64,000 bases of DNA, taken from NCBI GenBank assembly GCA_025526935.1, contig JAHLKD010000033.1, positions 368,139 to 432,138 of the forward strand, written 5' to 3'. Under the pieces are notes generated by a model. It saw only the letters and a list, made by a program, of their open reading frames with translations. It had not been told where the DNA came from and did no database searches. This document shows positions 22,720-64,000 of the stretch, piece after piece; position 1 is the stretch's first letter, and the number at the start of each line of letters is the position of its first letter. This DNA is from Cladochytrium replicatum. Taxonomy: Eukaryota; Chytridiomycota; Chytridiomycetes; Cladochytriales; Cladochytriaceae. The position numbers and the translations under genes are program-made.

Positions 22720-22852
22720 TACATGATCTGTCACTACTCTTTCTAAATTCTAATAATCTGTACTGTGTATGGTTCTGCTTATTTTCTAAAACCAAAAGTG
22801 TGGCTGGCTGGATCCGCACCTCCTTCATCATCATATCAGTGTAGAACTTGAA

Positions 22853-25188
22853 ATGGAACACACGCAGTTCGGGGGAGCGTCGGGAAGTGCGGCTAGGACG
22901 CGAAAGACGAAAGTATCGTACTTTTACCACAACGAGTGAGTGTATCCCTGCATCTGTCTACACCATCGCATCAAATCTCACTTTGGATCATGCAATCAAT
23001 TTAGCATCGGCCATTTCCACTATGCACAGGGCCATGAGATGAAGCCGGCTCGAATCAAGCTCACGCACAACTTGATCACTTCGTACAAGCTGCACAACAA
23101 GCTCGAAGTTTGTGTAAGGAGATTTAGTGGTTCGTTGATTGCTTCGTTTTCGTTTAGAGTTCTTGCATTGTTAGACGCCGCAAAAGGCATCGTTCAATGA
23201 TTTGACCCGGTTCCACAGGTAAGATGAAGTATTTATGGGATCACAAGTTCTATGATTGCTGACTCCTTGTGATTCAAATATTGCTTCAGTGATGATTACA
23301 TTGACTTCCTCAAACGTGTAACTCCTTACGACAGCTACATGATAGCCAAACATGGGCGAAGATGTGAGCTTCATTCACCAAAGTTACATCGCCTTAGTTT
23401 GCTCACCACACCACAGTCAACATGACAGAAACTACTGACTGCCCTGTCTTCGATGGGCTCTACGAACTGTGCTCAATCTCCGCCGGAGGATCCATACACG
23501 GCGCGGGGAAACTCAACCGTGGCGAATCGGACATCGCGGTCTGGTGGGGCGGAGGGCTCCACCACGCTAAAAAATCTGGCGCGTCGGGGTTCTGCTACGT
23601 CAATGACATCGTTTTGGGCATCTTGGAGCTATTAAGGGTTCATCAGAGAGTGCTGTATGTGGATATTGATGTGCACCATGGGGATGGAGTCGAGGAGGCG
23701 TTTTATACCACGGATCGGGTCATGACGTGCTCATTTCACAAGCATGGAGATTTCTTCCCGGGAACGGGATATGTTGAGGTACGTGTTCTTCTGAGAGAAC
23801 TTAATGAAAGCTGGATCTAATGTTTCGATAGGATATTGGGGCTGGAAAAGGTTGATTCGATATAATCCGGGCAAATTTGATCAATGCTTATGTTTACTTT
23901 GTAGGTCGCCACTATTCAGTTAACGTGCCACTTATGGATGGTGTCGATGACGAGTGCTTCGTGGATCTCGTGAAATCAGTAAGTGAACGAGCTGCCTTGG
24001 TTTCATCGTAATTAACGTCTGCATCAACAAAGGTTCTTGGTGCGGTCATGGAACGGTTTAGACCTGGTGCGGTGGTCCTTCAATGCGGTGCAGATTCGCT
24101 GAGCGGAGACCGACTTGGATGTTTCAACCTCTCGATGCGTGGACATGCATTTGCGCTGGAGTACTTAAAGACATGGAACGTTCCGATATTGATGTTGGGT
24201 GGCGGAGGTTATACAATTCGAGTAGGTGCATCTGGCCTTCACCTAGTAACATTTCTGTGATGAATCTCAACTTCGGTTGATTAAGAACGTGTCCAAAACT
24301 TGGTGCTATGAAACTGGAATTGCAGCTGGAATCGAGCTACCAGAAGGTGGGTTCTACTTTTGGATCATAAGCATCATTTGTTAAAGTTCTTTTTCTCTCG
24401 GTTTAGATCTTCCGTTTTCCGGTGAGCTCTGGTGGAACCAGTCTTGTGTATGAAATTCCCATGCCGGGTTGCAGATTACGTTGAGTACTTTGGACCCGAG
24501 TTCAAGTTGAATGTTGCTCCCAGCAACATGCAGAACGCAAACACACCAAAAAGCATCAAAGAAACAAAGTATGTTCTTCAAGAATAAATAAAGACCCTTC
24601 TTACAATTCTTTTCAGACGACTGGTTTTGGAAAGTTTACGGTACGTAGTGCATGCACCAAGTGTACAGATGCAGCCCACGTTTGCGGATCTCCCATCGTC
24701 TGATGACGAGCAAGTGGAAGATCCCGATGTCCGAATATCAGGTAAGATGAACTTGGTCCAAATAGATACGCATTTTCTTATCCGTTGCTTTGCAAGAACG
24801 CGCGTCGAATGCGTACAGGATACCGGATAATGCATACTCCGACTCGGAGGATGAGGAGGAAGATAATCGGACGCGAAGACATCGACGTAGTTACAAAATT
24901 GCTGAGCCTAAGCGGACTGAGGCAGCAACCGCAAGCGCGACACAGCGTCCGCATCTCACTCGGGTCTCCAGCACAGAGCTTCTTCAGAGGAGCTTGGTGG
25001 GAGCAAGGCCACGTGGGAAGAACGGGAGTCGGTTCAAGACTGAGGTTGGTGCGAGCGTGGACGTGGAGATGGGCGAGGAAGGCGTGGACTCTCCACCTTC
25101 GTTGAGAGCAGGGAGCGACGACGGTGGGGATAGCCAGGATCCTGTGTTGGATTCGCAGGAAGTAGACATGGGTGAAGGAATGACATGA
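22853..25188 (+). CDS. RPD3: Class I histone deacetylase (Rpd3/HDAC1 type)
   Basis: Thirteen exons give 546 residues: 22853-22935, 23005-23113, 23175-23218, 23290-23363, 23417-23778, 23832-23850, 23905-23978, 24033-24221, 24286-24346, 24407-24421, 24475-24568, 24617-24741 and 24797-25188. The catalytic domain is complete. It has [20 protein letters not shown] near the start, the catalytic His pair in GGGLHHAKK, zinc ligands in [43 protein letters not shown] and the Tyr-bearing GGGGYTIRN. The end of the domain ([22 protein letters not shown]) matches Rpd3/HDAC1 rather than class II enzymes. It removes acetyl groups from histone tails in nuclear co-repressor complexes. The acidic/basic tail of about 130 residues ([10 protein letters not shown] to DMGEGMT) is longer than usual. 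The 15-nt exon 10 is notable. A decayed second copy lies at 30449-32117. Confidence 0.95.
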
Positions 25189-25444
25189 AGCATTTCACCA
25201 CAGCTTTGCAAATACGGGAATCGGATCTTCTGGTCCACTTTAAGATGCTCATCCGCCCAAAATATATCAACAGTACGCTCAGCTGGCGACTGATTCAGTA
25301 TCCCTTCAAAATAAGTTAAAATATATGCAACAACAACAATTGACAGTTTTAACTTTGAACGAAATGCCTCCACTTCCCCTTGAATCGCACAGTTAAATTC
25401 TTCTTCCAACTTCATATCTGTCCCTACTCCTCCCTAAACAATAC

Positions 25445-26124
25445 TCAACATTTGCTCTCCCTAAATGCAACGTGCTTGAACTGTAGGGTGGCCTTCACTG
25501 CCGCACGTTCAGCAGGTGCCTCGATCTCGCTGATGTCAAAGTCCTGCACACCGTGGGCATAATTTGACAGAGAACGGTAAAGGTGTTGCTGGCACTTCAA
25601 GATGTCCGCCAACCTTCCCCGGCCGGTTGATTCGGCGTGCTTAACCCAATCTTGCTCATTGATCATATGAGACAGCAGGTTTTGAACTCCAGACGGGATG
25701 TATGGGGTGTTGGTATCTCTGAGGTGGTTCTGGTAGCGCTCTGCTGCAAGTTCTACGTTGTAGGGTACATGTCAAAAATAAGTGTAAACTTCTCTGACGT
25801 CATTAGTAACAAACCAATTGCACCACGGAGGTTGAGCATGTCTCTGAGCCTCATGAGCGTTAGAGATTCTCGCATTTCGGTCAATGCTGAAATCTTTTCC
25901 CGTCTCTCCGTTTCGGCCTTTTCAGCCAACAAGGTTTTCGTTTCAGCGAACAAGGTTTTCGTTTCCGCGTTGAGCAGTTCATTTTTAGCTCTGAGCTCTT
26001 GTACTTCAGCCCAAAGATGCTGTGCACTGAGAGTTATCGATTGGACTGCTGCCATGGAACTTTTGCGTCGAGGAAGGACGGAGAGGAACGGTCGAAACCG
26101 CAGTTGCGAGAGAGAAGACCTCAT
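25445..26124 (-). CDS. Repeat-borne coiled-coil protein, copy 1
   Basis: Exons 26124-25815 and 25752-25445 (62-nt intron, donor GTTTGT, acceptor CGTAG) give 205 residues. The N-terminus is basic and Ser/Arg-rich (RSSLSQLRFRPFLSVLPRRK), like a mitochondrial presequence. A coiled-coil stretch follows with a short repeat (AETKTLFAETKTLLAEKAET). The C-terminal domain (ELAAERYQNHLRDTNAPYIP, INEQDWVKHAEST, QHLYRSLSNYAHGVQDFD) is unrecognised. The intron is inferred because it joins two long open frames, and the same structure stays intact in all four copies of the window. It is convergent with RPD3. Function unknown. Confidence 0.6.
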
Positions 26125-26364
26125 GGTTTGAGTACAACGAGAGATGACCTGCTAGTGACAGATGTGTTGAGACTGTGTGTTCTGTGTCCTCGGTGTATTG
26201 TCAAACCTCCCTGCTCAAGGCTTAGTCGATCCTATTTTGGATACCCACCCAGGTAATGGAATTGTTTTGGTCAGAGCGCTTGCAGCACACCAGATCCAAC
26301 CTTCTCGACTCTTGATCACTCATATTTCCAATCACCACCCTCCTCTCACCACCCTCCTCTCACC

Positions 26365-26609
26365 ACGCCAAGGGATCGACGTAGTTACTAGACTACCGAA
26401 AGGGCAAGCACAACATGGCGGCTACATCTCATAATAATGCTGTCGAGCAATCCGCGTCTTCAGAGGAGCTGGGTGCAAGGACGCGTGGGAGGAACGGAAG
26501 TGGGCTGGGGAGGTGGTATCGTCGAGCAGGGAGAGAGGATGGTGGGATAAGCCTTGCTCCTTTGGATTCGCAGGAAACGGACATGGGTGAAGGGATTTGC
26601 GTTGTTTGA
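26365..26609 (+). pseudogene. Remnant of an RPD3 C-terminal tail
   Basis: Diverged but recognisable copy of the last part of the deacetylase. ATCGACGTAGTTAC and later SSEELGARTRGRNGSG and DSQETDMGEGI match the RPD3 tail ([28 protein letters not shown]). The catalytic domain is absent. Like the true RPD3 end, it is followed by a convergent coiled-coil gene, so the pair looks like an older duplicate of the RPD3-tail/coiled-coil unit. Confidence 0.55.
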
Positions 26610-26692
26610 TCCTCCTAAAGGGAAAAGAATATTCTTCCATTTTCGTTGCAATCCAATCTGACGTTGGAATCTTGCGTATACCGTTTCATAAA

Positions 26693-26911
26693 TCAACAGA
26701 AACTGAAACTAATCTTCCCCTGAATTATTTCAGCCAGAGACTCATTTCTTTTGTCGTTGAGCCTTTTATTTTGAACCTTGAGCTCATTTACTTCCGTTTG
26801 GAGCTCTTTCGCTTCAGTGTTGAGATTATCAAACTCACCATGTAGTTCCTGCCCACTCAGAATAATTGTTTGAGAATCCATGGAACTTTTGGCACGGAAA
26901 CTGAAGTGCAT
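26693..26911 (-). CDS. Diverged short paralogue of the coiled-coil family
   Basis: ATG at 26911 opens 72 residues (MHFSFRAKSSMDSQTIILSG, then coiled-coil LNTEAKELQTEVNELKVQ). KSSM, the following S-Q-x-I-x-LS pattern and the heptad-rich helix align with the 205-residue repeat-borne proteins (RRKSSMAAVQSITLSAQ). In this copy the N-terminus seems shortened and the second exon is missing. It could be a truncated relic. A second copy lies at 34536-34754. Confidence 0.4.
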   Translation of the reverse strand: MHFSFRAKSSMDSQTIILSGQELHGEFDNLNTEAKELQTEVNELKVQNKRLNDKRNESLAEIIQGKISFSFC

Positions 26912-27252
26912 TCTTGAATGCAATTGCGAGATACCAACTCTTTCAATGGCTTGAGCTCCCTTTGGAGCAAGACAGTTCCGACGCTCCCATGTGCATAAAT
27001 TCTCGAAAACGTGGAAAATTTTCGAGGATATCCATAGAATTTTCTTAAAATGCAAGGTCCTATTCAACCTCTCAGTGCATGCACAGCGATAGTGGATATG
27101 TTACACTGCACGTAAGTTTTTCTACAGCTAGCCGGCTACACTATTCCTTGCTCTCTAGATCGCTCGCACCTCAAATAAACGCCGCCGGGGATCAACTCGA
27201 CATCCTTCCGATTTGGCCGATATCATCACAACCTCTCCGCGTCTTCTCAACA

Positions 27253-28010
27253 TCATAGCCTCCCCATTTGTAAGGATCCCTCTCTTTCTCTCGCCATTTT
27301 TCGCATCATTGCGAAAGTCGCGAGCATCCGACGCTTGACCACGGCTATTTTATCACGTCGCCATCTGGTTGAATGGTGGGAAGCATGAGAATCCCAACAA
27401 TGCTCTTTGCCATTCTTGGTCTTCTTGATCTGCTTCTCCGCTGCTTTCTCGACCTTTCGTTTTGCCTCGGCGAGTTTATGCCTCTCGAGATCAGCCTCCA
27501 CACGTCGACCATCTCGTGTTCAAACTCTTCAAACTCATCCTTGGATGAGTCCTGGGTAGGTTGGAATAATGGTGCAGTATGTCTGTTGTTGATAGCCCAG
27601 TAATCAGGAGACTGTGGTGAATAGGTGTTCTGGCTTGTGACCGGCGCGCAAGGAAGACTCCCGCTTGTCAAGTTCAACCACCATGAAGTCAATATACGGG
27701 AAGAAAACATCGGAAATTACAGTAGTTTGAGCTTTCCTGAGAACTGGAAGTGAGTCCCAGTTCTACTGGAAGCGTAAGGCAAGGTACTGGAACAAAGAGA
27801 TCAAGCTGCTACCTGGTGCAGCTTGTGGACCCTAGACCGGATAAGGGGACATCCCGTCCTTTTTTGTTCCAATGATTCCACTCTCACGTTCCCTGGCATG
27901 TGTCCCTTTGCTTTCGGCCGGATTGTGAACTGCGTTTCAATCTCAGGTTGCATTATCCCAATGTATTCTGGTGGAAACTGGAGTTGGAAACGGACGGCGA
28001 GCTCTCTCAT
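27253..28010 (-). CDS. Repeat-borne hypothetical region, left copy
   Basis: Two open stretches lie here on the minus strand. The upstream one (28010-27801) contains FPPEYIGIMQPEIETQFTIR and GHMPGNVRVES. The downstream one (27710-27253) changes frame within a Lys/Glu/Arg-rich helix (ADLERHKLAEAKRKVEKAAE). They may be exons of one gene, but I could not place the splice sites. The mirror copy at 33326-34102 keeps the first stretch and also has an altered helix frame. No family recognised. Confidence 0.3.
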
Positions 28011-28225
28011 TTCATTTCATGATGGAAGGACCTTTTGTAGTTTGAGATGGTTAGAAATGAATGTACTATTGCCTGATTGCAAGCGAGCGCTGAGAATCGA
28101 GAGGGGACAATATTTTCATTTCAATGCAGACTTAGGGAGAGATTATTTTCATCAGAGAGCTTTGCAAGTTGTCACCAAACCACGCCACATCCTTCGTGCA
28201 GCTAGACATTTGCATCTGGGAGACA

Positions 28226-28719
28226 CAGCAAGGTGATTTCGTATCATTTATTTCTAAGGAATGTTATGAAAACAATGATGTCAGCCAAAGAAGAGCTAAA
28301 TACAGAAACAACGATGCTTACCTACCCAGGAGAGAAACACACATACTTATACGTGTTGACGCGTTTCGCCGCTCTGAAGACCCACCCACTTTCCCCACTT
28401 AACATTTCTCTATAATCTTTTTCATTTCTCTTATCTTTACCCCGCCTCCAGCGATGGTGTGATTATCATTATTACTCATTCTTTAATGTTCTTTCATTAA
28501 CTTCTAAGCTGCGCACCAAAAATGCATAAATAGGTTATTCCCTTTTTCTAATAAATCAGACTAGTTTAGATCCAAATCAACCATCTTACCTTCCTGTCTC
28601 CCGTCCTGGCAACAATCGTTAGAGGCCCAGAACCCTTTGTTCCCTCAAACCTAATTGCACAACAATTTCCATCTTTATCAACAACGTTACCTCCCACGAC
28701 AATAGGTGCGTGAGAAAGA
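28226..28719. other. Spacer inside the duplicated block
   Basis: AT-rich, apparently single-copy sequence between the outer-left and inner-left arms. No gene, RNA or repeat was recognised. Confidence 0.5.
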
Positions 28720-29730
28720 GATGCACTGGAACACACAGAACACATAGTCGCAACACATCTGTCACTAGCAGGTCATCTCTCGTTGTACTCAAACCATGAG
28801 GTCTTCTCTCTCGCAACTGCGGTTTCGACCGTTCCTCTCCGTCCTTCCTCGACGCAAAAGTTCCATGGCAGCAGTCCAATCGGTAACTCTCAGTGCACAG
28901 CACCTTTGGGCTGAAGTACAAGAGCTCAGAGCTAAAAATGAACTGCTCAACGCGGAAACGAAAACCTTGTTCGCTGAAACGAAAACCTTGTTGGCTGAAA
29001 AGGCCGAAACGGAGAGACGGGAAAAGATTTCAGCATTGACCGAAATGCGAGAATCTCTAACGCTCATGAGGCTCAGAGACATGCTCAACCTCCGTGGTGC
29101 AATTGGTTTGTTACTAATGACGTCAGAGAAGTTTACACTTATTTTTGACAATTACCCTACAACGTAGAACTTGCACCAGAGCGCTACCAGAACCACCTCA
29201 GAGATACCAACGCCCCATACATCCCGTCTGGAGTTCAAAACCTGCTGTCTCATATGATCAATGAGCAAGATTGGGTTAAGCACGCCGAATCAACCGGCCG
29301 GAGAAGGTTGGCGGACATCGTGAAGTGCCAGCAACACCTTTACCGTTCTCTGTCAAATTATGCCCACGGTGTGCAGGACTTTGACGTCAGCGAGATCGAG
29401 GCACCTGCTGAACGTGCGGCAGTGAAGGCCACCCTACAGTTCAAGCACGTTGCATTTAGGGAGAGCAAATGTTGAGTATTGTTTAGGGAGGAGTAGGGAC
29501 AGATATGAAGTTGGAAGAAGAATTTAACTGTGCGATTCAAGGGGAAGTTAAGGCATTTCGTTCAAAGTTAATACTGTCAATTGTTGTTGCATATATTTTA
29601 ACTTAATTTGAAGGGATACTGAATCATCGCCAGCTGAGCGTACTGTTGATATATTTTGGGCGGATGAGCATCTTAAAGTGGACCAGAAGATCCGATTCCC
29701 GTATTTGCAAAGCTGTGGGTGAAATGCTTC
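28720..29730. repeat. Inner inverted repeat, left arm
   Basis: Reverse-complement match to 32115-33152; gene ends pair as 28796/33074 and 29475/32374. Both inner arms also match the coiled-coil part of the outer arms, so this sequence occurs four times in the window. Confidence 0.8.
28796..29475 (+). CDS. Repeat-borne coiled-coil protein, copy 2
   Basis: Exons 28796-29105 and 29168-29475 give 205 residues with the same intron as copy 1. Differences from copy 1 are few, for example APERYQ for AAERYQ and STGRRRLADIV for STGRGRLADIL. It is divergent from copy 1, convergent with copy 3 and upstream of the cyclic-nucleotide-binding pseudogene. Function unknown. Confidence 0.6.
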
Positions 29731-30448
29731 GTGTCGAACAAATATATCAACTATCTAAAAGAGAACTAGGACTGAGCAGCACCAGAGAGGCTCGCACGGG
29801 CTTTTGCTGAGGATTCCGGCGTTTGCAGAGATTCAAAAGCAGCGGCAGATGGAGTTGATGAAGGAAAGCGCAGACGGTCGGGCGGGGAGGATGATTATCG
29901 AGGATGGGAGAAAGCCGACAGAATTCTATTTTCTGATTTCTGGGATCGCAAGGTTCTCCCAAGGAAACTTGAAGAATCTTGGACAGACGGTTAACTGGAC
30001 TAACTGCTCCTGACAATAAACCATAGCAGCCGCTACGAGTTCTGAGACAAGGAGACATGTTCGGCGACTTTCGTCGGGGACGAAAATGACGTGCGGCAGT
30101 ACTCGGTGATTACGATCAGCCCGTGCGGCCTCCTTGTCATCGAGAAGGAGGACTACATAATGGCTTTGTACAAAATCGAGTCCGAGCGGCTCCTGGCCGA
30201 GCAGATCGCGACCGGGAACGCCCCTGACTCGCTTGCGACATGCATAGAGTCTATCTCGACTCTCATCCTTTAAAAGCAACGAACAGGGGATATTACGGCC
30301 TCTGGCAAGGAGCTGCTCAAAAACAGACTTCGTCATTGTCAAAGTCGAGTTCTGTTCCGATCATACCTATCACCAAATTACAGGGATCCAGTACTGCCCG
30401 CACACGAAGTTACCGAAGAGTACCTTTTCAAAATGCGTGGAGACTGAG
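29731..30448 (+). pseudogene. Cyclic-nucleotide-binding-domain pseudogene, copy 1
   Basis: Plus-strand segments read as a cyclic-nucleotide-binding fold: LRIPAFAEIQ, then RMIIEDGRKPTEFYFLISG, then (frame changed) LRQGDMFGDF, then in another frame VGDENDVRQYSVITIS and LLVIEKEDYIMALY. The break after GDMFGDF cannot be repaired by a splice site I can see. The tail has lost about 120 bp relative to the copy at 36259-37110 and ends abruptly at the junction with the second RPD3. Confidence 0.6.
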
Positions 30449-32117
30449 CGAATCGGACATCGCGGTCGGTTGGGGCGGAGGGCTCCACCACGCTAAAAAA
30501 TCTGGCGTGTCGGGGTTCTGCTACGTCAATGACATCGTTTTGGGCATCTTGGAGCTATTAAGGGTTCATCAGAGAGTGCTGTACGTGGATATTGATGTGC
30601 ACCATGGGGGGAGTCGAGGAGGCGTTTTATACCACGGATCGGGTCATGACGTGCTCATTTCACAAGCATGGAGATTTCTTCCCGGGAACGGCCGGGAACG
30701 GGATATGTTGAGGACGTGTTCTTCTGAGAACTTAATGAAAGCTGGATCTAATGTTTCGATAGGATATTGGGGCTGGAAAAGGTTGATTCGATATAATCCG
30801 GGCAAATTTGATCAATGCTTATGTTTACTTTGTAGGTCGCCACTATTCAGTTAACCCACTTATGGATGGTGTCGATGACGAGTGCTTCGTGGATCTCGTG
30901 AAATCAGTAAGTGAATGAGCCGCCTTGGTTTCATCGTAATTAACGTCTGCATCAACAAAGGTTCTTGGTGCGGTCATGGAACGGTTTAGACCTGGTGCGG
31001 TGGTCCTTCAATGCGGTGCAGATTCGCTGAGCGGAGACCGACTTGGATGTTTCAACCTCTCGATGCGTGGACATGCATTTGCGCTGGAGTACTTAAAGAC
31101 ATGGAACGTTCCGATATTGATGTTGGGTGGCGGAGGTTATACAATTCGAGTAGGTGCATCTGGCCTTCACCTAGTAACATTTCTGTGATGAATCTCAACT
31201 TCGGTTGATTAAGAACGTGTCCAAAACTTGGTGCTATGAAACTGGAATTGCAGCTGGAATCGAGCTACCAGAAGGTGGGTTCTACTTTTGGATCATAAGC
31301 ATCATTTGTTAAAGTACTTTTTCTCTCGGTTTAGATCTTCCGTTTTCCGGTGAGCTCTGGTGGAACCAGTCTTGTGTATGAAATTCCCATGCCGGGTTGC
31401 AGATTACTATTACGTTGAGTACTTTGGACCCGACTTCAAGTTGAATGTTGCTCCCAGCAACATGCAGAACGCAAACACACCAAAAAGCATCAAAGAAACA
31501 AAGTATGTTCTTCAAGAATAAATAAAGACCCTTCTTACAATTCTTTTCAGACGACTGGTTTTGGAAAGTTTACGGTACGTAGTGCATGCACCAAGTGTAC
31601 AGATGCAGCCCACGTTTGCGGATCTCCCATCGTCTGATGACGAGCAAGTGGAAGATCCCGATGTCCGAATATCAGGTAAGATGAACTTGATCCAAATAGA
31701 TACGCATTTTCTTATCCGTTGCTTTGCCGAATGCGTACAGGATACCGGATAATGCGTACTCCGACTCGGAGGGATGAGGAGGAAGATAATCGGACGCGAA
31801 GACATCGACGTAGTTACAAAATTGCTGAGCCTAAGCGGACTGAGGCAGCAACCGCAAGCGCGACGCAGCGTCCGCATCTCACTCGGGTCTCCAGCACAGA
31901 GCTTCTTCAGAGGATCTTGGTGGGAGCATGGCCACGTGGGAAGAACGGGAGTCGGTTGAAGACTGAGGTTGGTGCGAGCGTGGACGTGGAGATCGGCGAG
32001 GAAGGCGTGGACTCTCCACCTTCGTTGAGAGCAGGGAGAGACGACGGTGGGGATAGCCAGGATCCTGTGTTGGATTCGCAGGAAGCAGACATGGGTGAAG
32101 GAATGTGTTCCACATGA
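30449..32117 (+). pseudogene. Second, decayed RPD3 copy
   Basis: Near-identical to RPD3 from the codons for ESDIAV to the stop, introns included, but without the first ~130 residues. Damage relative to the intact gene: 2 bp lost in the zinc-ligand motif after HH near 30603; a 10-bp duplication near 30690; the donor after the following exon changed from GAG|GTACGT to GAGGACGT; 6 bp added near 31407; a deletion removing the acceptor near 31727; and 1 bp added near 31770. It cannot encode a functional deacetylase. Retained introns show a DNA-level segmental duplication, not a retrocopy. Confidence 0.9.
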
Positions 32118-33152
32118 AGCATTTCACCCACAGCTTAGCAAATACGGGAATCGGATCTTCTGGTCCACTGTAAGATGCTCATCCGCCCAAAAATATACCA
32201 ACAGCTGGCGACTTATTCACTATCCCTTTAAAATAAGTTAAAATATAACATGCAACAACAACCATCGACAGTATTGTTCAACTTGAACGAAACGCCTCCG
32301 CTTCCCCTTGAACCGCACAGTTAAATTCTTCTTCCAACTTTATATCTGTCCCTACTCCCTCCCTAAAGAGTGCTCAACATTTGCTCTCCCTAAATGCAAT
32401 GTTCTTGAACTGTAGGGTGGCCTTCACTGCCGCACGTTCAGCAGGTGCCTCGATCTCGCTGACGTCAACGTCCTGCACACCGTGGGCATATTTTGAGAGA
32501 GAATGGTAAAGGTGTTGCTGGCACTTCACGATGTCCGCCAACCTTCCCAGGCCAGTTGATTCGGCGTGCTTAACCCAATCTGGCTCATTGATCATATGAG
32601 ACAGCAGGTTTTGAACTCCAGACGGGATGTATGGGGTGTTGGTATCTCTGAGGTGGTTCTGGTAGCGCTCTGCTGCAAGTTCTACGTTGTAGGGTACATG
32701 TCAAAAATAAGTGTAAACTTCTGTGATGTCATTAGTAACAAACCAATTGCACCACGGAGGTTGAGCATGTCTCTGAGCCTCATGAGCGTTAGAGATTCTC
32801 GCATTTCGGTCAATGCTGAAATCTTTTCCCGTCTCTCCGTTTCGGCCTTTTCAGCCAACAAGGTTTTCGTTTCCGCGAACAGGGTTTTCGTTTCAGCGAA
32901 CAGGGTTTTCGTTTCCGCGTTGAGCAGTTCATTTTTAGCTCTGAGCTCTTGTACTTCAGCCCAAAGGTGCTGTGCACTAAGAGTTACCGATTGGGCTGCT
33001 CCCATGGAACTTTTGCGTCGAGCAAGGACAGAGAAGAACGGTCGAAACCGCAGTTGCGAGAGACGAGACCTCATGGTTTGAGTACAACGAGAGATGACCT
33101 GCTAGTGACAGATGTGTTGATACTGTGTGTTCTGTGTGTTCCAGTGCATCTC
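32115..33152. repeat. Inner inverted repeat, right arm
   Basis: Reverse complement of 28720-29730. In direct orientation, the RPD3 copy plus this arm repeats the RPD3 3' half and the sequence up to about 26190. The arm carries a 21-bp insertion inside the coiled-coil gene. Confidence 0.8.
32374..33074 (-). CDS. Repeat-borne coiled-coil protein, copy 3
   Basis: Exons 33074-32744 and 32681-32374 give 212 residues. It differs from copy 1 mainly by one extra seven-residue unit (FAETKTL) in the coiled coil, an exact in-frame 21-bp expansion. Other changes are scattered substitutions such as GVQDVDVSE and FKNIAFRE. The frame and intron are preserved despite more divergence than the other copies. 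Function unknown. Confidence 0.6.
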
Positions 33153-33325
33153 TATCTCCCGCAACTGTGTCTCCCAGATGCAAATATCGAGCTGCACGGA
33201 GGATGTGGCGTAGTTTTGGTGGGAATCTGATGAAAAAAATCTCTCCGTGAAGTCTGCATTGAAATGAAAATATTGTCCCCTCTCGATTCTCAGCGCTCGC
33301 TTGCAATCAGGCAATAGTACATTCA

Positions 33326-34102
33326 TTGCTAACCATCTCAAACTACAAAAGTTCCTTCCATCATTTAATCGCCGTCCGTTTCCAACTCCAGTTTCCACCA
33401 GAATATATTGGGATAATGCAACCTGAGATTGAATCGCAGTTCACAATCCGCCCGAAAGCAAAGGGACACATGCCAGGGAACGTGAGAGTGGAATCATTGG
33501 AAGAAAAAAGGACGGGATGTCCCCTTATCCGGTCTAGGGTCCACAAGCTGCACCGGGTAGCAGCTTGATCTCTTTGTTCCAGTACCTTGGCTGACGCTTC
33601 CAGTAGAACTGGGACTCACTTCCAGTTCTCAGGAAAGCTCGAACTACTGTAATTTCCGATGATATTTTCCAGTATATTGACTTCATGGTGGTTGAAGTTG
33701 ACAAGCGGGAGTCTTCCTGGCGCGCCGGTCACAAACCAGAACACCTATTCACCACAGTCTCCTGATTACTGGGCTATCAACAATAGACATACTGCACCAT
33801 TATTCCAACCTACCCAGGACTCATACAAGGATGAGTTTGAACACGAGATGGTCGTCGTGTGGAGGCTGATCTCGAGAGGCATAAACTCGCCGAGGCAAAG
33901 CGAGGGTCGAGAAAGCAGCGGAGAAGCAGATCAAGAAGACCAAATGGCAAAGAGCATTGTTGGGATTCTCATTACTCCACTAAACTCCTATGTTTTCAGA
34001 CCCACTACTTCCCCCTCATGCCGTAACGCTGGCACAACTCTTGCGGTCCTCAGAAGATCTGTGCTTCCCACCAGTCAACCAGATGTCGACGTGATAAAAT
34101 AG
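33326..34102 (+). CDS. Repeat-borne hypothetical region, right copy
   Basis: Mirror of 27253-28010. The first stretch (33326-33568) has FPPEYIGIMQPEIESQFTIR. The second (33659-34102) has DEFEHEM and then an altered frame through the Lys/Glu-rich helix seen in the left copy. It also contains the 78-bp insertion. Whether it is expressed is unclear; no domain recognised. Confidence 0.3.
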
Positions 34103-34535
34103 CCGTGGTCAAGCGTCGGATGCTCGCGACTTTTGCAATGATGCGAAAAATGGCGAGAGAAAGAGAGGGATCCTTACAAATGGGGAGGCTATGATGTTGA
34201 GAAGACGCGGAGAGGTTGTGATGATATCGGCCAAATCGGAATGATGTCGAGTTGATCCCCGGCGGCGTTTATTTGAGGTGCGAGCGATCTAGAGAGCAAG
34301 GAATAGTGTAGCCGGCTAGCTGTAGAAAAACTTACGTGCAGTGTAACATATCCACTATCGCTGTGCATGCACTGAGAGGTTGAATAGGACCTTGCATTTT
34401 AAGAAAATTCTATGGATATCCTCGAAAATTTTCCACGTTTTCGAGAAATTATGCACATGGGAGCGTCGGAACTGTCTTGCTCCAAAGGGAGCTCAAGCCA
34501 TTGAAAGAGTTGGTATCTCGCAATTGCATTCAAGA

Positions 34536-34754
34536 ATGCACTTCAGTTTCCGTGCCAAAAGTTCCATGGATTCTCAAACACTTATTCTGAGTGGGCAGGA
34601 ACTACATGGTGAGTTTGATAATCTCAACACTGAAGCGAAAGAGCTCCAAACGGAAGTAAATGAGCTCAAGGTTCAAAATAAAAGGCTCAACGACAAAAGA
34701 AATGAGTCTCTGGCTGAAATAATTCAGGGGAAGATTAGTTTCAGTTTCTGTTGA
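34536..34754 (+). CDS. Diverged short paralogue of the coiled-coil family, second copy
   Basis: Mirror of 26693-26911, 72 residues, almost identical (TLILSG for TIILSG). Upstream sequence remains open without an ATG and resembles the basic leader of the longer family members (GISQLHSRM against SLSQLRFRP). This supports derivation from the 205-residue proteins with loss of the original start. Confidence 0.4.
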   Translation: MHFSFRAKSSMDSQTLILSGQELHGEFDNLNTEAKELQTEVNELKVQNKRLNDKRNESLAEIIQGKISFSFC

Positions 34755-34837
34755 TTTATTAAACCGTATACGCAAGATTCCAACATCAGATTGGATTGCA
34801 ACGAAAATGGAAGAATATTCTTTTCCCTTTAGGAGGA

Positions 34838-35082
34838 TCAAACAACGCAAATCCCTTCACCCATGTCCGTTTCCTGCGAATCCAAAGGAGCAAGGCTTAT
34901 CCCACCATCCTCTCTCCCTGCTCGACGATACCACCTCCCCAGCCCACTTCCGTTCCTCCCACGCGTCCTTGCACCCAGCTCCTCTGAAGACGCGGATTGC
35001 TCGACAGCATTATTATGAGATGTAGCCGTCATGTTGTGCTTGCCCTTTCGGTAGTCTAGTAACTACGTCGATCCCTTGGCGT
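34838..35082 (-). pseudogene. Remnant of an RPD3 C-terminal tail, mirror copy
   Basis: Inverted twin of 26365-26609 with the same RPD3-tail signatures (ARTRGRNGSG, DSQETDMGEG). It lies convergent with the short coiled-coil paralogue. Confidence 0.55.
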
Positions 35083-35322
35083 GGTGAGAGGAGGGTGGTG
35101 AGAGGAGGGTGGTGATTGGAAATATGAGTGATCAAGAGTCGAGAAGGTTGGATCTGGTGTGCTGCAAGCGCTCTGACCAAAACAATTCCATTACCTGGGT
35201 GGGTATCCAAAATAGGATCGACTAAGCCTTGAGCAGGGAGGTTTGACAATACACCGAGGACACAGAACACACAGTCTCAACACATCTGTCACTAGCAGGT
35301 CATCTCTCGTTGTACTCAAACC

Positions 35323-36002
35323 ATGAGGTCTTCTCTCTCGCAACTGCGGTTTCGACCGTTCCTCTCCGTCCTTCCTCGACGCAAAAGTTCCATGGCAGCA
35401 GTCCAATCGATAACTCTCAGTGCACAGCATCTTTGGGCTGAAGTACAAGAGCTCAGAGCTAAAAATGAACTACTCAACGCGGAAACGAAAACCTTGTTCG
35501 CTGAAACGAAAACCTTGTTGGCTGAAAAGGCCGAAACGGAGAGACGGGAAAAGATTTCAGCATTGACCGAAATGCGAGAATCTCTAACGCTCATGAGGCT
35601 CAGAGACATGCTCAACCTCCGTGGTGCAATTGGTTTGTTACTAATGACGTCAGAGAAGTTTACACTTATTTTTGACATGTACCCTAAAACGTAGAACTTG
35701 CAGCAGAGCGCTACCAGAACCACCTCAGAGATACCAACGCCCCATACATCCCGTCTGGAGTTCAAAACCTGCTGTCTCATATGATCAATGAGCAAGATTG
35801 GGTTAAGCACGCCGAATCAACTGGCCTGGGAAGGTTGGCGGACATCGTGAAGTGCCAGCACCGCCTTTACCCTTCTCTGTCAAATTATGCCCACGGTGTG
35901 CAGGACTTTGACGTCAGAGAGATCGAGGCACCTGCTGAACGTGCGGCAGTGAAGGCCACCCTACAGTTCAAGCACGTTGCATTTAGGGAGAGCAAATGTT
36001 GA
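35323..36002 (+). CDS. Repeat-borne coiled-coil protein, copy 4
   Basis: Exons 35323-35632 and 35695-36002 give 205 residues with the shared intron. The first exon is nearly identical to copy 1; the second has changes such as KCQHRLYPSLS and DFDVREIE. It is the mirror partner of copy 1 in the outer inverted repeat. Function unknown. Confidence 0.6.
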
Positions 36003-36258
36003 GTATTGTTTAGGGAGGAGTAGGGACAGATATGAAGTTGGAAGAAGAATTTAACTGTGCGATTCAAGGGGAAGTGGAGGCATTTCGTTCAAAGTTAAAA
36101 CTGTCAGTTGTTGTTGTTGCATATATTTTAACTTATTTTGAAGGGATACTGAATCAGTCGCCAGCTGAGCGTACTGTTGATATATTTTGGGCGGATGAGC
36201 ATCTTAAAGTGGACCAGAAGATCCGATTCCCGTATTTGCAAAGCTGTGGGTGAAATGC

Positions 36259-37110
36259 TTCGTGTCGAACAAATATTTCAACTATCTAAACGAGAACTAG
36301 GACTGAGCAGCACCAGAGAGGCTCGCACGGGCTTTTTCTGAGGATTCCGGCGTTTGCAGAGATTCAAAAGCAGCCCCAGATCGTGTTGATGAAGGAAAGC
36401 GCAGACGGTCGGGCGGGGAGGATGATTATCGAGGATGGGAGAAAGCCGACAGAATTCTATTTTCTGATTTCTGGGATCGCAAGGTTCTCCCAAGGACACT
36501 TGAAGAATCTTGGACAGACGGTTAACTGGACTAACTGCTCCTGACCATAAACCATAGCAGCCGCTACGAGTTCTGAGACAAGGAGACATGTTCGGCGACT
36601 TTCGTCGGGGACGAAAATGACGTGCGGCAGTACTCGGTGATTACAATCAGCCCGTGCGGCCTCCTTGTCATCGAGAAGGAGGACTACATAATGGCTTTGT
36701 ACAAAATCGAGTCCGAGCGGCTCTTGGCCGAGCAGATCGCGGCCGGAAACGCCCCTGACTCGCTTGCGACATGCATAGAGTTCTATCTCGACTCTCATCC
36801 TTTAAAAACACCAAACAGGTGATATTACGGCCCCTGGCAAGGAGCTGCGATCGTACGCAATTTTAGCCGGCGACCTCGATCGGGAGAAGAGCAAGTGTAC
36901 TTTAACTTACAGGGCAAAGTCAAGCTGCTTTGGACCCTTCCGTTTCTTCGGTCCGAGAAGTCTCAAAAACAGACTTCGTCGTTGTCAAAGTCGAGTTCTG
37001 TTCCAATCATACCTATCACCAAATTGATCCAGTACTACCCGCACACGAAGTTACCGAAGAACACCTTTTCAAAACGCGTGGAGACTGATGGTGTGAATGA
37101 TTTAACTTAA
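36259..37110 (+). pseudogene. Cyclic-nucleotide-binding-domain pseudogene, copy 2
   Basis: Same fragments and same frame break as the copy at 29731-30448 (LRQGDMFGDF, then VGDENDVRQYSV in another frame). It keeps the ~120 bp missing there (VYFNLQGKVKLLW region) and continues LATCIEFYLDSHP. A shared lesion means the gene was already broken, or has a frame feature I misread, before it was duplicated. Confidence 0.6.
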
Positions 37111-37461
37111 CGATACTCCCTGCTTTCTTTGTTTTCTGGTTACTGGTGCTGATTGCTCAAGAAAAAACGTTTTGCGAGGGGAGCCGTGGGAAAAATTCAA
37201 ACGTCGTCTTATCGGAAGTGTCGTCGAGAGAAGCAAGCGCAAAACAAGCCTTTATTGAAGCTCTGAGAAGTAAAGGTCTGGCAACGTATCATAGGACCGC
37301 AGGTTTCAAGTGATCTTTTCAAGCAACCGGACGTTGGCTGCAGCATTTTTGGAATGTGAAACAAAAGCCTTGTATTACACTGCAGGAACACAAGCAAGCC
37401 GAATTTGTGAAGGCATGCGCTTCCTACAACCACTTTTTCTTTGACGCCCAAAGTTGCACGC
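37111..37461. other. 3' flank of eS8, possible coding remnant
   Basis: A plus-strand frame is open for much of 37150-37460 with a single TGA near 37310 (EVSSREASAKQAFIEAL before it, EHKQAEFVKACASYNH after it). It might be the last, decayed part of the preceding pseudogene. It overlaps the 3' end of the eS8 gene on the other strand. Confidence 0.25.
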
Positions 37462-38540
37462 TTAGTTCTTTGACCTGAGCTTCCTTTGGTAGAACTCGAG
37501 CTCCTTGCCCTCCAAAATGTACCCGTCGCACCTGCCGCTCTGGCCAGGGCGGGACGAGACGCAAGCGAGAAGCTTGGTAACTGTGAATTGCTCCTCAATG
37601 GCGGGGTCGACCTTGGCAGTTGGTTTCCTGGCGTCGATCTTCTTCTGGACGGAGGTGGAGCGCTCCTTGTTGAGAGGGTCCTCAGGGTCGGTGACCTTTA
37701 GAAAAATAAAAATATAAATGATTACGATTAGTATTGAAATGGCTAAATACCTTCTTGCCCTTGCGACCGATGGGGAGGGCGTAGTGAGCCTCGTACCATT
37801 GCCTGAAAGGAGCAGCGTCGATTTCGACAATGCAGCCCTTGACGAGGGTGTTGGTACGGACCAATTCGTTGTTGGTGGCGTTGTACTTCACCGAGAGGAT
37901 ACGGGCCTTGCGGGTGACGGATTCAGAAGCCCACGCAAAGTTACCTGGAATGATCGAATGAGACACTTCCGAAAAAATGTTTTCTAGGAGCATACCAGAG
38001 TCGAGACGGAGGGCACGGTATTTGAGGTTACCGCCGCGGACGCGAACGACGTGGATACGCTTGGCGCCAATCTTGGTGTTGGCAGACTGGCGACCCAACT
38101 CGAACTTCCTCTTCTTGCGGTAGTGTGCCCGCTTGGCTCCGGTCGCTGAGCGCTTGTGACGGCTATCCCGACTAATACCTGGGATGAGGCAGGATTAACA
38201 CAGATGATTCGTTGAAATGCATTGCGGGAACAAGTCGAGCGAGATATAAACAATTCTCAGCGAGTCCGGCTTCTAATCGGACGCTGAGGGAATCAAGAAA
38301 CGAGTCCGTCCGAATCCATAAGCACCCACTGTCAAACTGCCCCGAATCAACAAAGGTTTTCTCAATCACCATTTCAACAACCGTCCAGCCATCCCTCCAA
38401 CGGCAGCAATCCATCGTCGATCCAGCCTATCCATCCGGTATCGTAACAGTGCCAATCGTTGACACCCATCCGCCTCCTTCCCGTTCGGTCGATCCGTTCG
38501 GTCGATCCGCTTCCCGGCAATCGCTGCCCCACTCACCCAT
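37462..38540 (-). CDS. RPS8: 40S ribosomal protein eS8
   Basis: Exons 38540-38537, 38178-37996, 37944-37751 and 37695-37462 give 204 residues, the usual eS8 length. Family signatures run throughout: [20 protein letters not shown] at the N-terminus, [18 protein letters not shown], then [11 protein letters not shown], and [20 protein letters not shown] near the end. The protein is part of the small ribosomal subunit. The first exon holds only ATGG, split from the rest by a 358-nt intron, the longest in this window. A telomere-repeat-like motif lies about 55 bp upstream of the ATG. Confidence 0.95.
38481..38506 (+). repeat. 13-bp tandem repeat in eS8 intron 1
   Basis: CCGTTCGGTCGAT occurs twice in direct succession inside the long first intron of the ribosomal protein gene. 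No snoRNA box was recognised there. Confidence 0.7.
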
Positions 38541-38949
38541 TCTGTGACTCTGAGCTCGGAGTGTGCACAGCCGCAAGGTGTTGTAAATGTGGGTAGTTAG
38601 GGTTACGATTTCTTAGGGTTGGATAACCTGTTCACACACTTGTTTGTACGTGACTGCAAATGTTTCATTCTCATTCATTCGTCACATTCTCTTGACTGGG
38701 TTGTGGTCGATGTCATACATGAAGAATCCCGCTACCCCGATCGCCATGAACAGGAACGGATCCCCCCGTCGTGAAATGAACAATGTTACGTGCATCGGTG
38801 CCCTAATTTGGTGGCAACGTGGGAGTCCGGATTTCATGCTTCATTTTGAGGTTCTTTGGTGCAAACACAAACATCAAAATGAGTTTATTGTAAATACACA
38901 CTCCATAGCCCACCTTATCTTCAATAGCCAAACAGTAAGGGTTATGCTT
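38541..38949. other. Intergenic between eS8 promoter and macro-sirtuin gene
   Basis: Contains the telobox-like element. Otherwise no gene or RNA was recognised. Confidence 0.5.
38594..38619 (+). promoter_or_regulatory. Telobox-like element upstream of eS8
   Basis: TAGTTAGGGTTA (38594-38605) is a 12-base match to the unusual telomere repeat at the window end, in its own register. A second partial copy, CTTAGGGTTGG, follows at about 38612-38622. They sit 55-80 bp upstream of the eS8 start. In many fungi and plants, telomere-like boxes in ribosomal protein promoters bind Myb-type telobox factors; that function here is inferred. Confidence 0.5.
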
Positions 38950-41012
38950 CTACACCTCAAAGTATGCCCGCCAGATCTCATTCACCGCATCTCCAGCATC
39001 CAAAGATAACCCAATAAAATCATCGCTTTCCATCACCATTCCACGACCTCCCCACCCGCCCAAGCCAGGATACTCTGCATTAATCCTTACGAGTTTCACA
39101 TCACCACTCCCACCGGCGCCCTCCAGAATCTTCTCCATAGGCACACGTATCACTCCAGGAGTGTTGAACCCAACTCCAATCTCCAGAATCACGAGCCTCG
39201 GCCCACCGTTTTGCGATGGTGACGCGTAGTTTCCTGAAACGGTCTCGGAGACCCAGTCCGAGAACTTTTTGCGCTGGGAGAGATGCGGTCGCTCGTTGAA
39301 CCATGACCCGCCTCGTACGTTCATGAACACCGGACCATTGCACACTCGACAGCGTGGGATCACACTTGGATCCGTAAGCTCCTGCGTTTGCGGATCGAGA
39401 TGGTGTGGGATCGCGGCGTTGATGTAATCCAGAGTTGGGAACTCGCTTTGTGGTGTGCACATCTTGAGGCATTGCATTCTCGCATAGTCTCCCTACAATG
39501 ATATTTGATTGGCACGAAAGAGAGGAGCTACATTCTTAAGCTTACTTGAGGCGTGTATATCCTGGACAATGGGAAACCATTCCGACCAAACATTCCGTCC
39601 GCATTCGTTGTAATACAGAATGAGCCATCGGAATCCCTCCCGTTCGCACTCTCATTCGTATCGTATCTCGCCCGCTGCGACACTGACTTTTGTATCTCAA
39701 GAAGTTTTCCGTACACCTCAGAAACCGGCCACTCGAACCGCGCCAGTTTAACTTGCGACAATAAATATCCCCACTGCAACTCGGGCGTCCAGTCAGTAAA
39801 TCCGATAAACTCGTACATCCTTCTAAAACCGCGGCTGTGCATTACGGGAAAGTGCTTCTTGAACACGTCTTCGGAAGTATAATCAAGCCCTGCGGCGGCG
39901 GAGAGGCCCGCGCCAGCGGCGATAAGAATGCGATCAGTTGTACGGAGCCAGTTTGCGATTTTGGCGATTTGGGCACGGAAGGGATTGACGACGTGGAGAG
40001 TTCGAAGGTGGGAGAGGGCGGTTGACAAATCAGGCTCGCGAGCACTGGGTCTTTGGTTTGCGCAATCTTTAAGGAGAGTCTCATAAATTCGTTCGTCGCT
40101 TTCGAGGAACACATTGAACACGACCCTTTCAATGCTGACGGTCCCCTTGGACTGTTTCTCTTCAAGCCAACGTGCGACAGTCTCGATCGCAACTTTCGCA
40201 CCCAACTCTTGAGGAAACCCGTATACCCCTGTCGAAATGCAGCAGACGGAGATAGTTTTCGCGCCAAGTTCCTCCGCCTTGTCCAAACAGCTCCAGTAAC
40301 AACTTGACAACTGTTCCGTTTGCTCCATGCTCGGTGGGTGGCCTCTCTCCACCTGTGGGCCGACTGTGTGCAGTACGAAACGGGAAGGGAGCATGTATGC
40401 TTTCGTGGCTGTACAAGTCCCCACAGGTTCTTCTTCGCTGTGACGCGCGGACGCAATCGCGTGGCAGTCATCTCTGAGCCTTGGCCCCGCAAAGTCGTGG
40501 ATCGCATTGTCGATGCAGTGGTGTTCGGGGCGGAAGCATCCAAGTAATGCCGAGTTCGCTGCGTTGACGATTGCGTCAGCGGAAAGGTCGACGATATTGC
40601 CCCTCCAGAGGGAGACGGAGCGGAGGAAATATGAATCGGATTTGATAGTTGGGTCGGAAACGAAACGGTCGAAGGCAGATGGGAGTGTGGATGGGTTGAC
40701 AGTGGTGCGACGCGCTCTTTCAGTAGCAAGCAGGCGCTCGAGGCGAGATATGAGGGTGATATCGATTGGACCGGATTCAGCGGGGTGGCGGGTGGTCAGG
40801 AGCGATCTGAGGAGCTGGCGCTTCTGGTATTGGTCTTTGGACTGGAGCATTGCACTTGCTCTCGTGCGTACAGCGTCGTGCGCGATCGATGTGTTGGAAA
40901 GCTGTATTTTCTCAACCAAAAAAGCGAGGGCGACGTCGTGCAGGCACTCGTCGTACGCAGCGGCATCGTCTAAGGGCAGCGGATGGGGTCTCTCGTAGGA
41001 ACCGAGGGTCAT
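38950..41012 (-). CDS. Zinc-type macrodomain fused to SirTM (class M) sirtuin
   Basis: Exons 41012-39546 and 39492-38950 give 669 residues; the ATG at 41012 is the first in frame. Residues ~130-315 form a macrodomain (WRGNIVDLSADAIVNAANSA) with the zinc-macro signature GCFRPEHHCIDNAIHDFAG (Cys159, His164, Cys166) and the loop STGVYGFP. Residues ~345-669 form a sirtuin with GAGLSAAAGLDY, TTNADGMFGRNG, a four-Cys zinc site (MQCLKMC and RCRVC) and EIGVGFNTPGVIR. These are SirTM features. SirTM sirtuins ADP-ribosylate proteins, in bacteria a lipoylated GcvH-like carrier, and the linked macrodomain removes the mark. In bacteria the two are separate operon genes; here one protein carries eraser and writer. 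Fusions are known from fungi. The target in this organism is unknown. Confidence 0.9.
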
Positions 41013-41224
41013 GTTGGGCTGCTTGGGGACGGGAATTTGCACAGCATTTAAATAATGCCGGATTTAGTAATAAACATCCGTGATTTGTAAATTTGATATT
41101 AGTATCGGAACAGCTTTGTTTGATGGCTCTACAAATGAATGGTGGCTGCTGAGAGCTTGAGACCAATTGCTCTCCAGGCACGGTCAGCTCCAGTTATACG
41201 ACGCAAAGTTTCTCAACAACCTAC

Positions 41225-60889: not shown

Positions 60890-63077
<2,188 letters not shown>

Positions 63078-63731
63078 AGTTCTCATCTCTGACCTTTGCT
63101 CTCCTTTGCTACGGACACTGTTCTAAATTGCTTGCACACTGGTGCATTCCTCATTTCATTTCTGAAGATTGGCTTTATATGTGTGCGGAGTTTTGTTGCT
63201 GCATTTCTCAGTTAACTCTTTTGCCGCCACTACTATTGATTTTTGTTATGCAGTTGCCCACAACTTATTGTTTTCTTCCCTTTTGCTTGGTAAGCGGAAA
63301 CAATAAGTGGTTGTTTTGTTAAGAACCAACATGTCCCTCATTATTTTTGAATGTTAACAAGCTATCGCACAACACATTCACTCAGGACTAATCAGAATCT
63401 TAATTTGGTCCACAGTTTGCTCATACGCGTTGGGATATACACTTTTAATTCCATAGTTCCCTGGTGATTCCTTGTGTGACTTGGGGATACGACCATATAA
63501 GGAAGGTATTCAGGTTTGGAAATCTCGAAGTTCGCCATCAACTGCAGCAAATACAAGTTCTCGATAGCACACACTGCCTACGCCTCACATATTGCTCCAA
63601 GCACTACATTAGCAAGAAAAACATCGATTCTATTACCAAACCACTCCAAAAGATAGGGTTAGTCCGATCAGAAACATGGACCAAGTGCCTAACAGGGAAT
63701 GTTAATAACATTTGGACGAACCATCCAACGT
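63078..63731. other. Subtelomeric gene-free stretch
   Basis: 3' flank of the kinase and unique subtelomeric sequence. The open frame at 63464-63733 has no recognisable domain. Confidence 0.55.
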
Positions 63732-63837
63732 GAATTTATTTACCATGGACAGACTGTCCAACCCGAATTTATTAGCCGCAGACAGACTGTCCGAAACGAA
63801 TGTATTAGCCGCAGACAGACTGTCCGAAACGAATGTA
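63732..63837 (+). repeat. 33-bp subtelomeric satellite
   Basis: Three head-to-tail 33-bp units (63732-63764, 63765-63797, 63798-63830), then the first seven bases of a fourth, GAATGTA, before telomere repeats begin. Each unit contains ACAGACTGTCC, and the last two units differ at one base. Confidence 0.9.
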
Positions 63838-64000
63838 GGGTTAGTTAGGGTTAGTTAGGGTTAGTTAGGGTTAGTTAGGGTTAGTTAGGGTTAGTTAGGG
63901 TTAGTTAGGGTTAGTTAGGGTTAGTTAGGGTTAGTTAGGGTTAGTTAGGGTTAGTTAGGGTTAGTTAGGGTTAGTTAGGGTTAGTTAGGGTTAGTTAGGG
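63838..64000 (+). repeat. Telomere array of TTAGTTAGGG
   Basis: After GGG at 63838-63840, sixteen perfect copies of the 10-bp unit TTAGTTAGGG fill 63841-64000 to the end of the window. The G-rich strand runs 5' to 3' towards the end, as expected for a right chromosome end. The unit is canonical TTAGGG with an added TTAG. Confidence 0.93.

What the first reader, a model, noticed from the sequence alone, without database searches (positions are those of the whole stretch)
63838..64000. Non-canonical 10-bp telomere repeat TTAGTTAGGG
Sixteen perfect decamers close the window with telomeric strand orientation and a subtelomeric satellite before them. Most filamentous fungi and chytrids are expected to use TTAGGG. 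A homogeneous decamer implies a changed telomerase RNA template (about one and a half units of CCCTAACTAA) and possibly adapted telomere-binding proteins. The perfect uniformity argues against mixed TTAGGG/TTAG slippage.
Basis: partly seen in the sequence, partly recalled or inferred. Interest (0 to 1): 0.88.

Follow-up and report, generated by a model that had tools for sequence, protein, structure and literature searches.

The report
Fungal telomere with ten-base repeat
This stretch looks like the end of a fungal chromosome capped by a ten-letter repeat instead of the usual six-letter one, closely resembling the caps known from the yeast Yarrowia and pointing to an altered template in the telomere-making enzyme.

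Summary
A perfect period-10 array of TTAGTTAGGG fills window 63836-64000 (165 nt; 16 whole units at 63841-64000), G-rich strand towards the window edge. It follows about 3.7 copies of a 33-bp satellite and starts inside the last copy. Best reading: a real telomere made by telomerase with a 10-nt templating unit. The window is not Yarrowia-like: its last gene is modelled with nine short introns in about 2 kb. It may therefore be an independent arrival at the same design, most simply by duplication of four template bases. TTAGTTAG makes telomerase realignment ambiguous for overlaps up to 5 nt, unlike TTAGTCAGGG, so the homogeneous array constrains the unseen telomerase RNA. Two TTAGGGTT boxes lie upstream of a ribosomal-protein gene, a weak hint of a retained TTAGGG-binding factor. 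No own genome is held, so other ends, telomerase RNA and terminality are untested. New variant of a known kind.

The parts
63836..64000 (+). Telomeric array (TTAGTTAGGG)n, 165 nt of perfect period 10, G-rich strand 5'->3' towards the window end
63713..63837 (.). 33-bp subtelomeric satellite, copies in register at 63713, 63746, 63779 and 63812, the last cut by the array
63831..63840 (+). Junction GAATG|TAGGG: the previous satellite copy reads GAATGTATTAG; the two bases TA fit both satellite and telomere unit (possible priming overlap of 2 nt)
   Evidence: inference as to priming
63654..63663 (+). Single internal 10-nt match to a rotation of the unit (TAGGGTTAGT), about 180 bp inside the array; may be chance
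   Evidence: about 1.2 ten-nt matches expected in the window
61000..63077 (+). Last gene modelled before the end (C-terminal part only): C2 plus AGC-type protein kinase, Sch9-like architecture (name recalled), nine GT-AG introns of 49-70 bp, stop codon about 758 bp before the array
38594..38620 (-). Two TTAGGGTT (AACCCTAA) boxes 16 bp apart upstream of the ribosomal protein eS8 gene; the longest match to the array outside it (12 nt, TAGTTAGGGTTA) is at the same place

Best explanation
This is the telomere of a nuclear chromosome of an intron-rich fungus. Telomerase adds 10-nt units TTAGTTAGGG using an RNA template of about one and a half units, predicted to contain 5'-CUAACCCUAACUAAC-3' or a shifted version of it. 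The array was seeded on a 33-bp subtelomeric satellite, possibly by priming on a terminal TA. The unit keeps the uninterrupted TTAGGG / GGGTTA core, so a TTAGGG-specific Myb protein (TRF/Tbf1-like or Tay1-like) can still bind once per 10 bp, as Tay1 does in Yarrowia. The simplest origin is a tandem duplication of four template bases (UAAC) in an ancestral TTAGGG-type template. Shown: the array, its orientation, its homogeneity, the satellite and the gene context. Inferred: terminal position, the template, the binding protein and the origin.
For: Perfect 165-nt array at the window edge, G-strand outward. Satellite with the array starting inside its last copy. No other copy of the decamer in the other 63.8 kb. 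Eukaryotic protein-coding genes on the same sequence, the last ending about 0.76 kb from the array. Same length and same TTNNNNAGGG formula as the telomeres of the Yarrowia clade (deletion of the telomerase RNA was tested in Y. lipolytica; the other units were read from scaffold ends or predicted telomerase RNAs); the Y. lipolytica telomerase RNA was found with a 1.5-repeat query (PMC6746865). A TTAGGGTT pair upstream of the eS8 gene (0 of 300 shuffles gave a pair within 30 bp; statistic chosen after seeing it).
Against: Only one end was seen. The array may continue past 64000 and could be interstitial. No telomerase RNA, TERT or telomere-binding protein was found: Rfam gave 0 matches at gathering scores, but Pfam was run on only 18 of the 49 reading frames plus the spliced kinase. 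The chytrid B. dendrobatidis and the glomeromycete R. irregularis have TTAGGG. The internal repetition TTAGTTAG should invite slippage, yet none is seen in 16 units. Plain TTAGGG is not frequent outside the array (18 in 63.8 kb, both strands), and the eS8 boxes are direct repeats, not the palindrome that C. albicans Tbf1 needs.
Confidence: 0.85

Rival explanations
1. Interstitial or subtelomeric minisatellite: the decamer array is an internal satellite derived from telomeric DNA and the real telomere (perhaps TTAGGG) lies beyond 64000 or at other ends.
For: The window stops inside the array, so the far side is unseen. A second short satellite sits next to it, and its last two copies are identical over 26 bases, so perfect short repeats of non-telomeric kind do exist here.
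Against: 16 of 16 units are exact with no degeneration, whereas old internal copies would be expected to decay, as the proximal satellite copies have (73% alike). No other decamer copy in the window. The unit is a known telomere formula.
Confidence: 0.07
2. Ordinary hexamer template with regular mis-translocation, giving TTAG and TTAGGG additions in strict alternation.
For: The unit equals TTAG + TTAGGG, and overlaps up to 5 nt (GTTAG) can align in two registers.
Against: Strict alternation by chance over 16 units has probability about 2.3e-10 at equal rates; I know of no mechanism that enforces alternation.
Confidence: 0.04
3. Assembly or base-calling artefact: the consensus collapsed a TTAGGG or mixed array into a decamer.
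For: Raw reads are not available here; telomere ends are often poorly assembled (general knowledge).
Against: The known nanopore telomere errors (recalled, no call) do not give TTAGTTAGGG. A consensus collapse would hardly leave 16 identical 10-mers without one irregularity.
Confidence: 0.04

Closest known systems
Yarrowia clade telomeres (TTNNNNAGGG; Y. lipolytica TTAGTCAGGG), PMC6746865
   Same: 10-bp unit; fits TTNNNNAGGG exactly; keeps the TTAGGG-type core; one base from the Y. lipolytica unit; probably also a template of about 1.5 units.
   Different: T instead of C at position 6, which makes the unit TTAG+TTAG+GG and gives a contiguous TTAGGG; found in an intron-rich fungal sequence that does not look like Saccharomycotina. 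The units of five species with changed spacers are printed only in a figure that I could not see, so one of them might be identical.
Canonical TTAGGG telomeres of many fungi, for example Batrachochytrium dendrobatidis (PMC11797018, PMC6284735) and Rhizophagus irregularis (PMC10234402); passages read
   Same: Contains TTAGGG once per unit; same strand orientation.
   Different: Four extra bases TTAG in every unit; no two adjacent TTAGGG hexamers in the array.
Other non-canonical fungal units called by TelFinder (PMC10100673, passages; for example TTAGTG and TTAGGA in Malassezia, TTAGGGGG in Agaricus), disputed in part by PMC10433822 (whole text)
   Same: Departures from TTAGGG in fungi outside the yeasts have been reported.
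   Different: None of the units in the passages I saw is this decamer; the full TelFinder table was not seen.
10-bp telomeric units of true bugs (TTAGGGATGG in Cimex, PMC11354137; TTAGGGGTGG in Geocoris, PMC12287714; search listings only)
   Same: 10-bp units containing TTAGGG.
   Different: Insects, different extra bases; unit length alone is shared.

Membership tests
Yarrowia-type decameric telomere | Unit of 10 bp of the form TTNNNNAGGG | tested here: met
   TT-AGTT-AGGG, 16 of 16 whole units; formula from PMC6746865
Yarrowia-type decameric telomere | Array at the physical chromosome end, shown at several ends | tested here: inconclusive
   Array reaches the window edge; own genome not held
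Yarrowia-type decameric telomere | Telomerase RNA with a template of about 1.5 decamers | not testable with these tools
   No genome held; in the window alone, no Rfam match at gathering scores
Yarrowia-type decameric telomere | Bound by a Tay1-type double-Myb protein | not testable with these tools
   No proteome held; only an indirect hint from the TTAGGGTT boxes. Tay1 is described as confined to Ascomycota and Basidiomycota (PMC7952879, passages), so its presence depends on the undetermined phylum
Yarrowia-type decameric telomere | Host in the Yarrowia clade (Saccharomycotina) | tested here: not met
   Nine GT-AG introns in 61000-63077 with an open spliced frame and a full-length kinase domain; a 17-residue intron-like insert in the eS8 frame. 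That Saccharomycotina are intron-poor is recalled
Canonical TTAGGG telomere | Head-to-tail TTAGGG hexamers | tested here: not met
   Period is 10 throughout, so TTAGGGTTAGGG does not occur
Interstitial telomeric sequence | Non-telomeric sequence on both sides | tested here: inconclusive
   Only the proximal flank is in the window

The most novel reading that the evidence does not exclude
The unit TTAG-TTAG-GG is the undecayed product of a four-base tandem duplication inside an ancestral TTAGGG-type telomerase template, in a fungus outside the Yarrowia clade. Yarrowia's TTAG-TCAG-GG would be the same kind of duplication after one T-to-C change. Decameric fungal telomeres would then arise repeatedly by template duplication, tolerated because TTAGGG-binding Myb proteins still bind. 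The change in Yarrowia would have removed the realignment ambiguity that this lineage must suppress in another way, such as a longer alignment region or a shifted template boundary.
Probability: 0.35. Interest if true: 0.68.

Novelty: new variant of a known kind. Interest (0 to 1): 0.5.

Why it matters
How a telomere repeat can change in every chromosome at once without killing the cell is an open question. A decamer that is exactly TTAGGG plus a duplicated TTAG, in a lineage other than Yarrowia, would point to one simple and repeatable route: duplication within the template while the core bound by Myb proteins stays intact. It also gives a sharp enzymology test, because a unit containing TTAGTTAG should be copied unfaithfully unless the alignment overlap is at least 6 nt or the template boundary falls where a shorter overlap is already unique (for example a product ending in GG or GGG). 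Finally, the long distinctive unit is a ready probe for the poorly conserved telomerase RNA of this lineage.

Tried and rejected
Viral contigs: 0 matches for three units and for two units. Genome contigs (prokaryotes): 0 matches for 2.6 units and 1 for two units; that one is an isolated two-unit match in a bacterial MAG with unrelated sequence on both sides, taken as chance. Telomerase RNA in the window: the Rfam gathering search gave 0 matches, and no copy of the decamer or of TTAGTTAG / CTAACTAA exists outside the array. tRNA scan: 0 (bacterial settings).

Literature for the exact unit. One search held 150 papers for six rotations or complements, 40 listed. One search (TTAGTTAGGG plus telomer) held 4, all listed: I read the passages of PMC3260238, which uses synthetic oligonucleotides, and judged the other three by title and abstract start only. 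One search held 23, 22 listed; one search held 79, 25 listed; (wordings for 10-bp telomeric units) held 3, all listed. None of the listed papers was recognisable from title and abstract start as reporting this unit as a telomere, but apart from PMC3260238 I did not open the passages, and unlisted papers were not seen. Broader searches: one search held 1 paper; one search held 170, 20 listed; one search held 12, all listed; one search held 56, 15 listed; one search held 8, all listed. Figure 1 of PMC6746865, which prints the variant Yarrowia units, is not held, and PMC7857110 is not held, so an identical published unit is not excluded.

Phylum: not settled. The eS8 frame matched 63 distinct PDB sequences, 60 shown; the best three (184, 183 and 181 bits) are filamentous ascomycete and fission yeast chains as far as I recall the entry codes, with vertebrate chains close behind at about 173 bits. 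That favours fungi weakly and does not separate chytrids, basidiomycetes and other intron-rich fungi. The single TAGGGTTAGT at 63654 was considered as a telomere relic, but about 1.2 ten-nt matches to the unit are expected by chance in the window. The gene model was built by hand-picking approximate introns and then choosing, out of 384 splice combinations in three frames each, those without a stop; two were open, differing by one residue.

Full report
Observation. The last 165 bases of the window (63836-64000) are a perfect period-10 sequence, listed by TRF as 16.5 copies with 100% matches and no indels. Sixteen whole TTAGTTAGGG units tile 63841-64000; with one mismatch allowed there are 17 matches in the window, and 0 of 100 shuffles reached that (largest 8). 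The G-rich strand points towards the window edge, the orientation expected of a right-hand telomere. Outside the array the decamer does not occur on either strand of the remaining 63.8 kb, and neither does TTAGTTAG. The array touches the edge, so its full length and terminal position are not shown.

Surroundings. Immediately inside lies a short satellite of 33 bp, copies in register at 63713, 63746, 63779 and 63812. The first two are 73% alike; the last is identical to the one before it for 26 bases. The array begins inside that last copy: the previous copy reads GAATGTATTAG, the last reads GAATGTAGGGTTAG, so the two bases TA fit both partners. That is what de novo telomere addition on a broken satellite would leave, but a 2-nt overlap is weak evidence. 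The last gene modelled has its stop codon at 63075-63077, about 758 bp before the array. Its C-terminal part, spliced at nine GT-AG introns of 49-70 bp, gives one open frame (2 of 384 splice combinations were open, differing by one residue) with C2, full-length protein kinase and kinase C-terminal domains, the layout of fungal Sch9 (recalled). A LAA2-like protein also fits a fungus (recalled). Nine introns in about 2 kb, and a 17-residue in-frame intron-like insert in eS8, do not fit the intron-poor Saccharomycotina to which Yarrowia belongs (recalled). The phylum was not determined.

Best reading. The array is most simply a telomere synthesised by telomerase from a template of about one and a half decamers. 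The nearest known case that I found is the Yarrowia clade: all 13 species studied have 10-nt units, all but C. hispaniensis of the form TTNNNNAGGG; seven have TTAGTCAGGG and five have one or two substitutions in the spacer (PMC6746865: abstract, passages, sections 5 and 6, and part 1 of section 11 read). The window unit fits the formula and differs from Y. lipolytica at one base. Y. lipolytica Tay1, a double-Myb protein, bound most of the clade's units with affinity comparable to its own, slightly less for C. hispaniensis, and its retention at telomeres is explained by the GGGTTA core (PMC7952879, passages). The window unit keeps an uninterrupted TTAGGG and GGGTTA, so no special adaptation of binding proteins is needed. 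The same review describes Tay1 as confined to Ascomycota and Basidiomycota, so in another phylum a TRF-like protein would have to do this.

Hint of a TTAGGG-binding factor. The only two TTAGGGTT boxes outside the array lie 16 bp apart (38597 and 38613), upstream of the ribosomal protein eS8 gene on the minus strand. None of 300 dinucleotide-preserving shuffles gave a pair within 30 bp; the mean number of boxes was 1.27, so their number alone is ordinary. The longest match to the array outside it (12 nt) is at the same place; 6 of 300 shuffles reached 12. I chose this pair statistic after seeing the boxes, so the figure is descriptive. Clustered TTAGGG motifs are bound by Tbf1 in S. cerevisiae, and C. 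albicans Tbf1 sits at ribosomal protein genes, but the latter requires a TTAGGGN6CCCTAA palindrome (PMC2834713, passages), which these direct repeats are not. Plain TTAGGG occurs 18 times outside the array (12 on +, 6 on -), which is no excess. The eS8 start codon and transcription start were not mapped.

Mechanistic constraint. On a decamer template the product's 3' end must realign after each round. For TTAGTTAGGG, 10 of 10 possible product ends are ambiguous with a 2-nt overlap, 6 with 3, 4 with 4, 2 with 5, and 0 with 6; for TTAGTCAGGG the counts are 6 with 2 and 0 with 3 or more. If a template of the Y. lipolytica query shape (GTTAG at both ends) were used here with a 5-nt overlap, occasional TTAGGG units would be expected; the overlap actually used in Y. 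lipolytica was not in what I read. No variant is seen in 16 units, which bounds the rate below 17% (95%). Hence the overlap is probably at least 6 nt, or the product end is one where a shorter overlap is unique, such as GG or GGG. This is inference; recombinational homogenisation of the array could also mask slippage.

Origin. TTAGTTAGGG equals TTAGGG with TTAG duplicated; a UAAC duplication in a template would produce it. Under the same logic TTAGTCAGGG looks like TTAGTTAGGG after one substitution. Cervenak and colleagues describe an insertion of four nucleotides; the duplication reading is mine and untested. Changes in the telomerase RNA template, including after gene duplication, are proposed as the cause of repeat change in Mimulus (PMC12169523, passages). 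Non-canonical units have also been called in basidiomycetes by TelFinder (PMC10100673, passages), a tool whose results were partly disputed (PMC10433822, whole text), so a departure from TTAGGG in a fungus is not in itself new.

Limits. One end only, no genome, no reads. Pfam was run on 18 of the 49 reading frames listed plus the spliced kinase, so an undetected telomere protein in the window is possible. Viral and prokaryotic collections gave no array, as expected for a fungal sequence. The literature searches showed no paper recognisable from its listing as reporting this unit as a telomere, but not all papers were listed, passages were opened for only one of them, and the figure with the Yarrowia variants could not be read.

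Noticed in passing
window 23522-37088: Large nested direct and inverted duplications: direct copies about 6.5-6.9 kb apart, mostly 93-100% identical, and 2.2-kb inverted arms 99% complementary (region 20000-40000 searched). They include a frame with a partial histone deacetylase domain (30228-30851), which looks like a recent segmental duplication with gene fragments.
   Followed up: partly
window 39531-41063 (-): Macro domain protein whose C-terminal part reads like a SirTM-type sirtuin (by eye, recalled; Pfam listed only Macro): possible macro-sirtuin fusion.
   Followed up: no
window 2215-3024 (-) and 3584-4036 (+): Two divergent reading frames that look alike and membrane-spanning by eye, without a Pfam match; three more frames without a match at 10.7-13.6 kb.
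   Followed up: no
window 38481-38509: 13-bp tandem CCGTTCGGTCGAT (2.2 copies) between the eS8 coding region and the TTAGGGTT boxes.
   Followed up: no
window 63747-63759: The 33-bp satellite contains a short inverted repeat GGACA-GAC-TGTCC, intact in the copy at 63746 (by eye).
   Followed up: no
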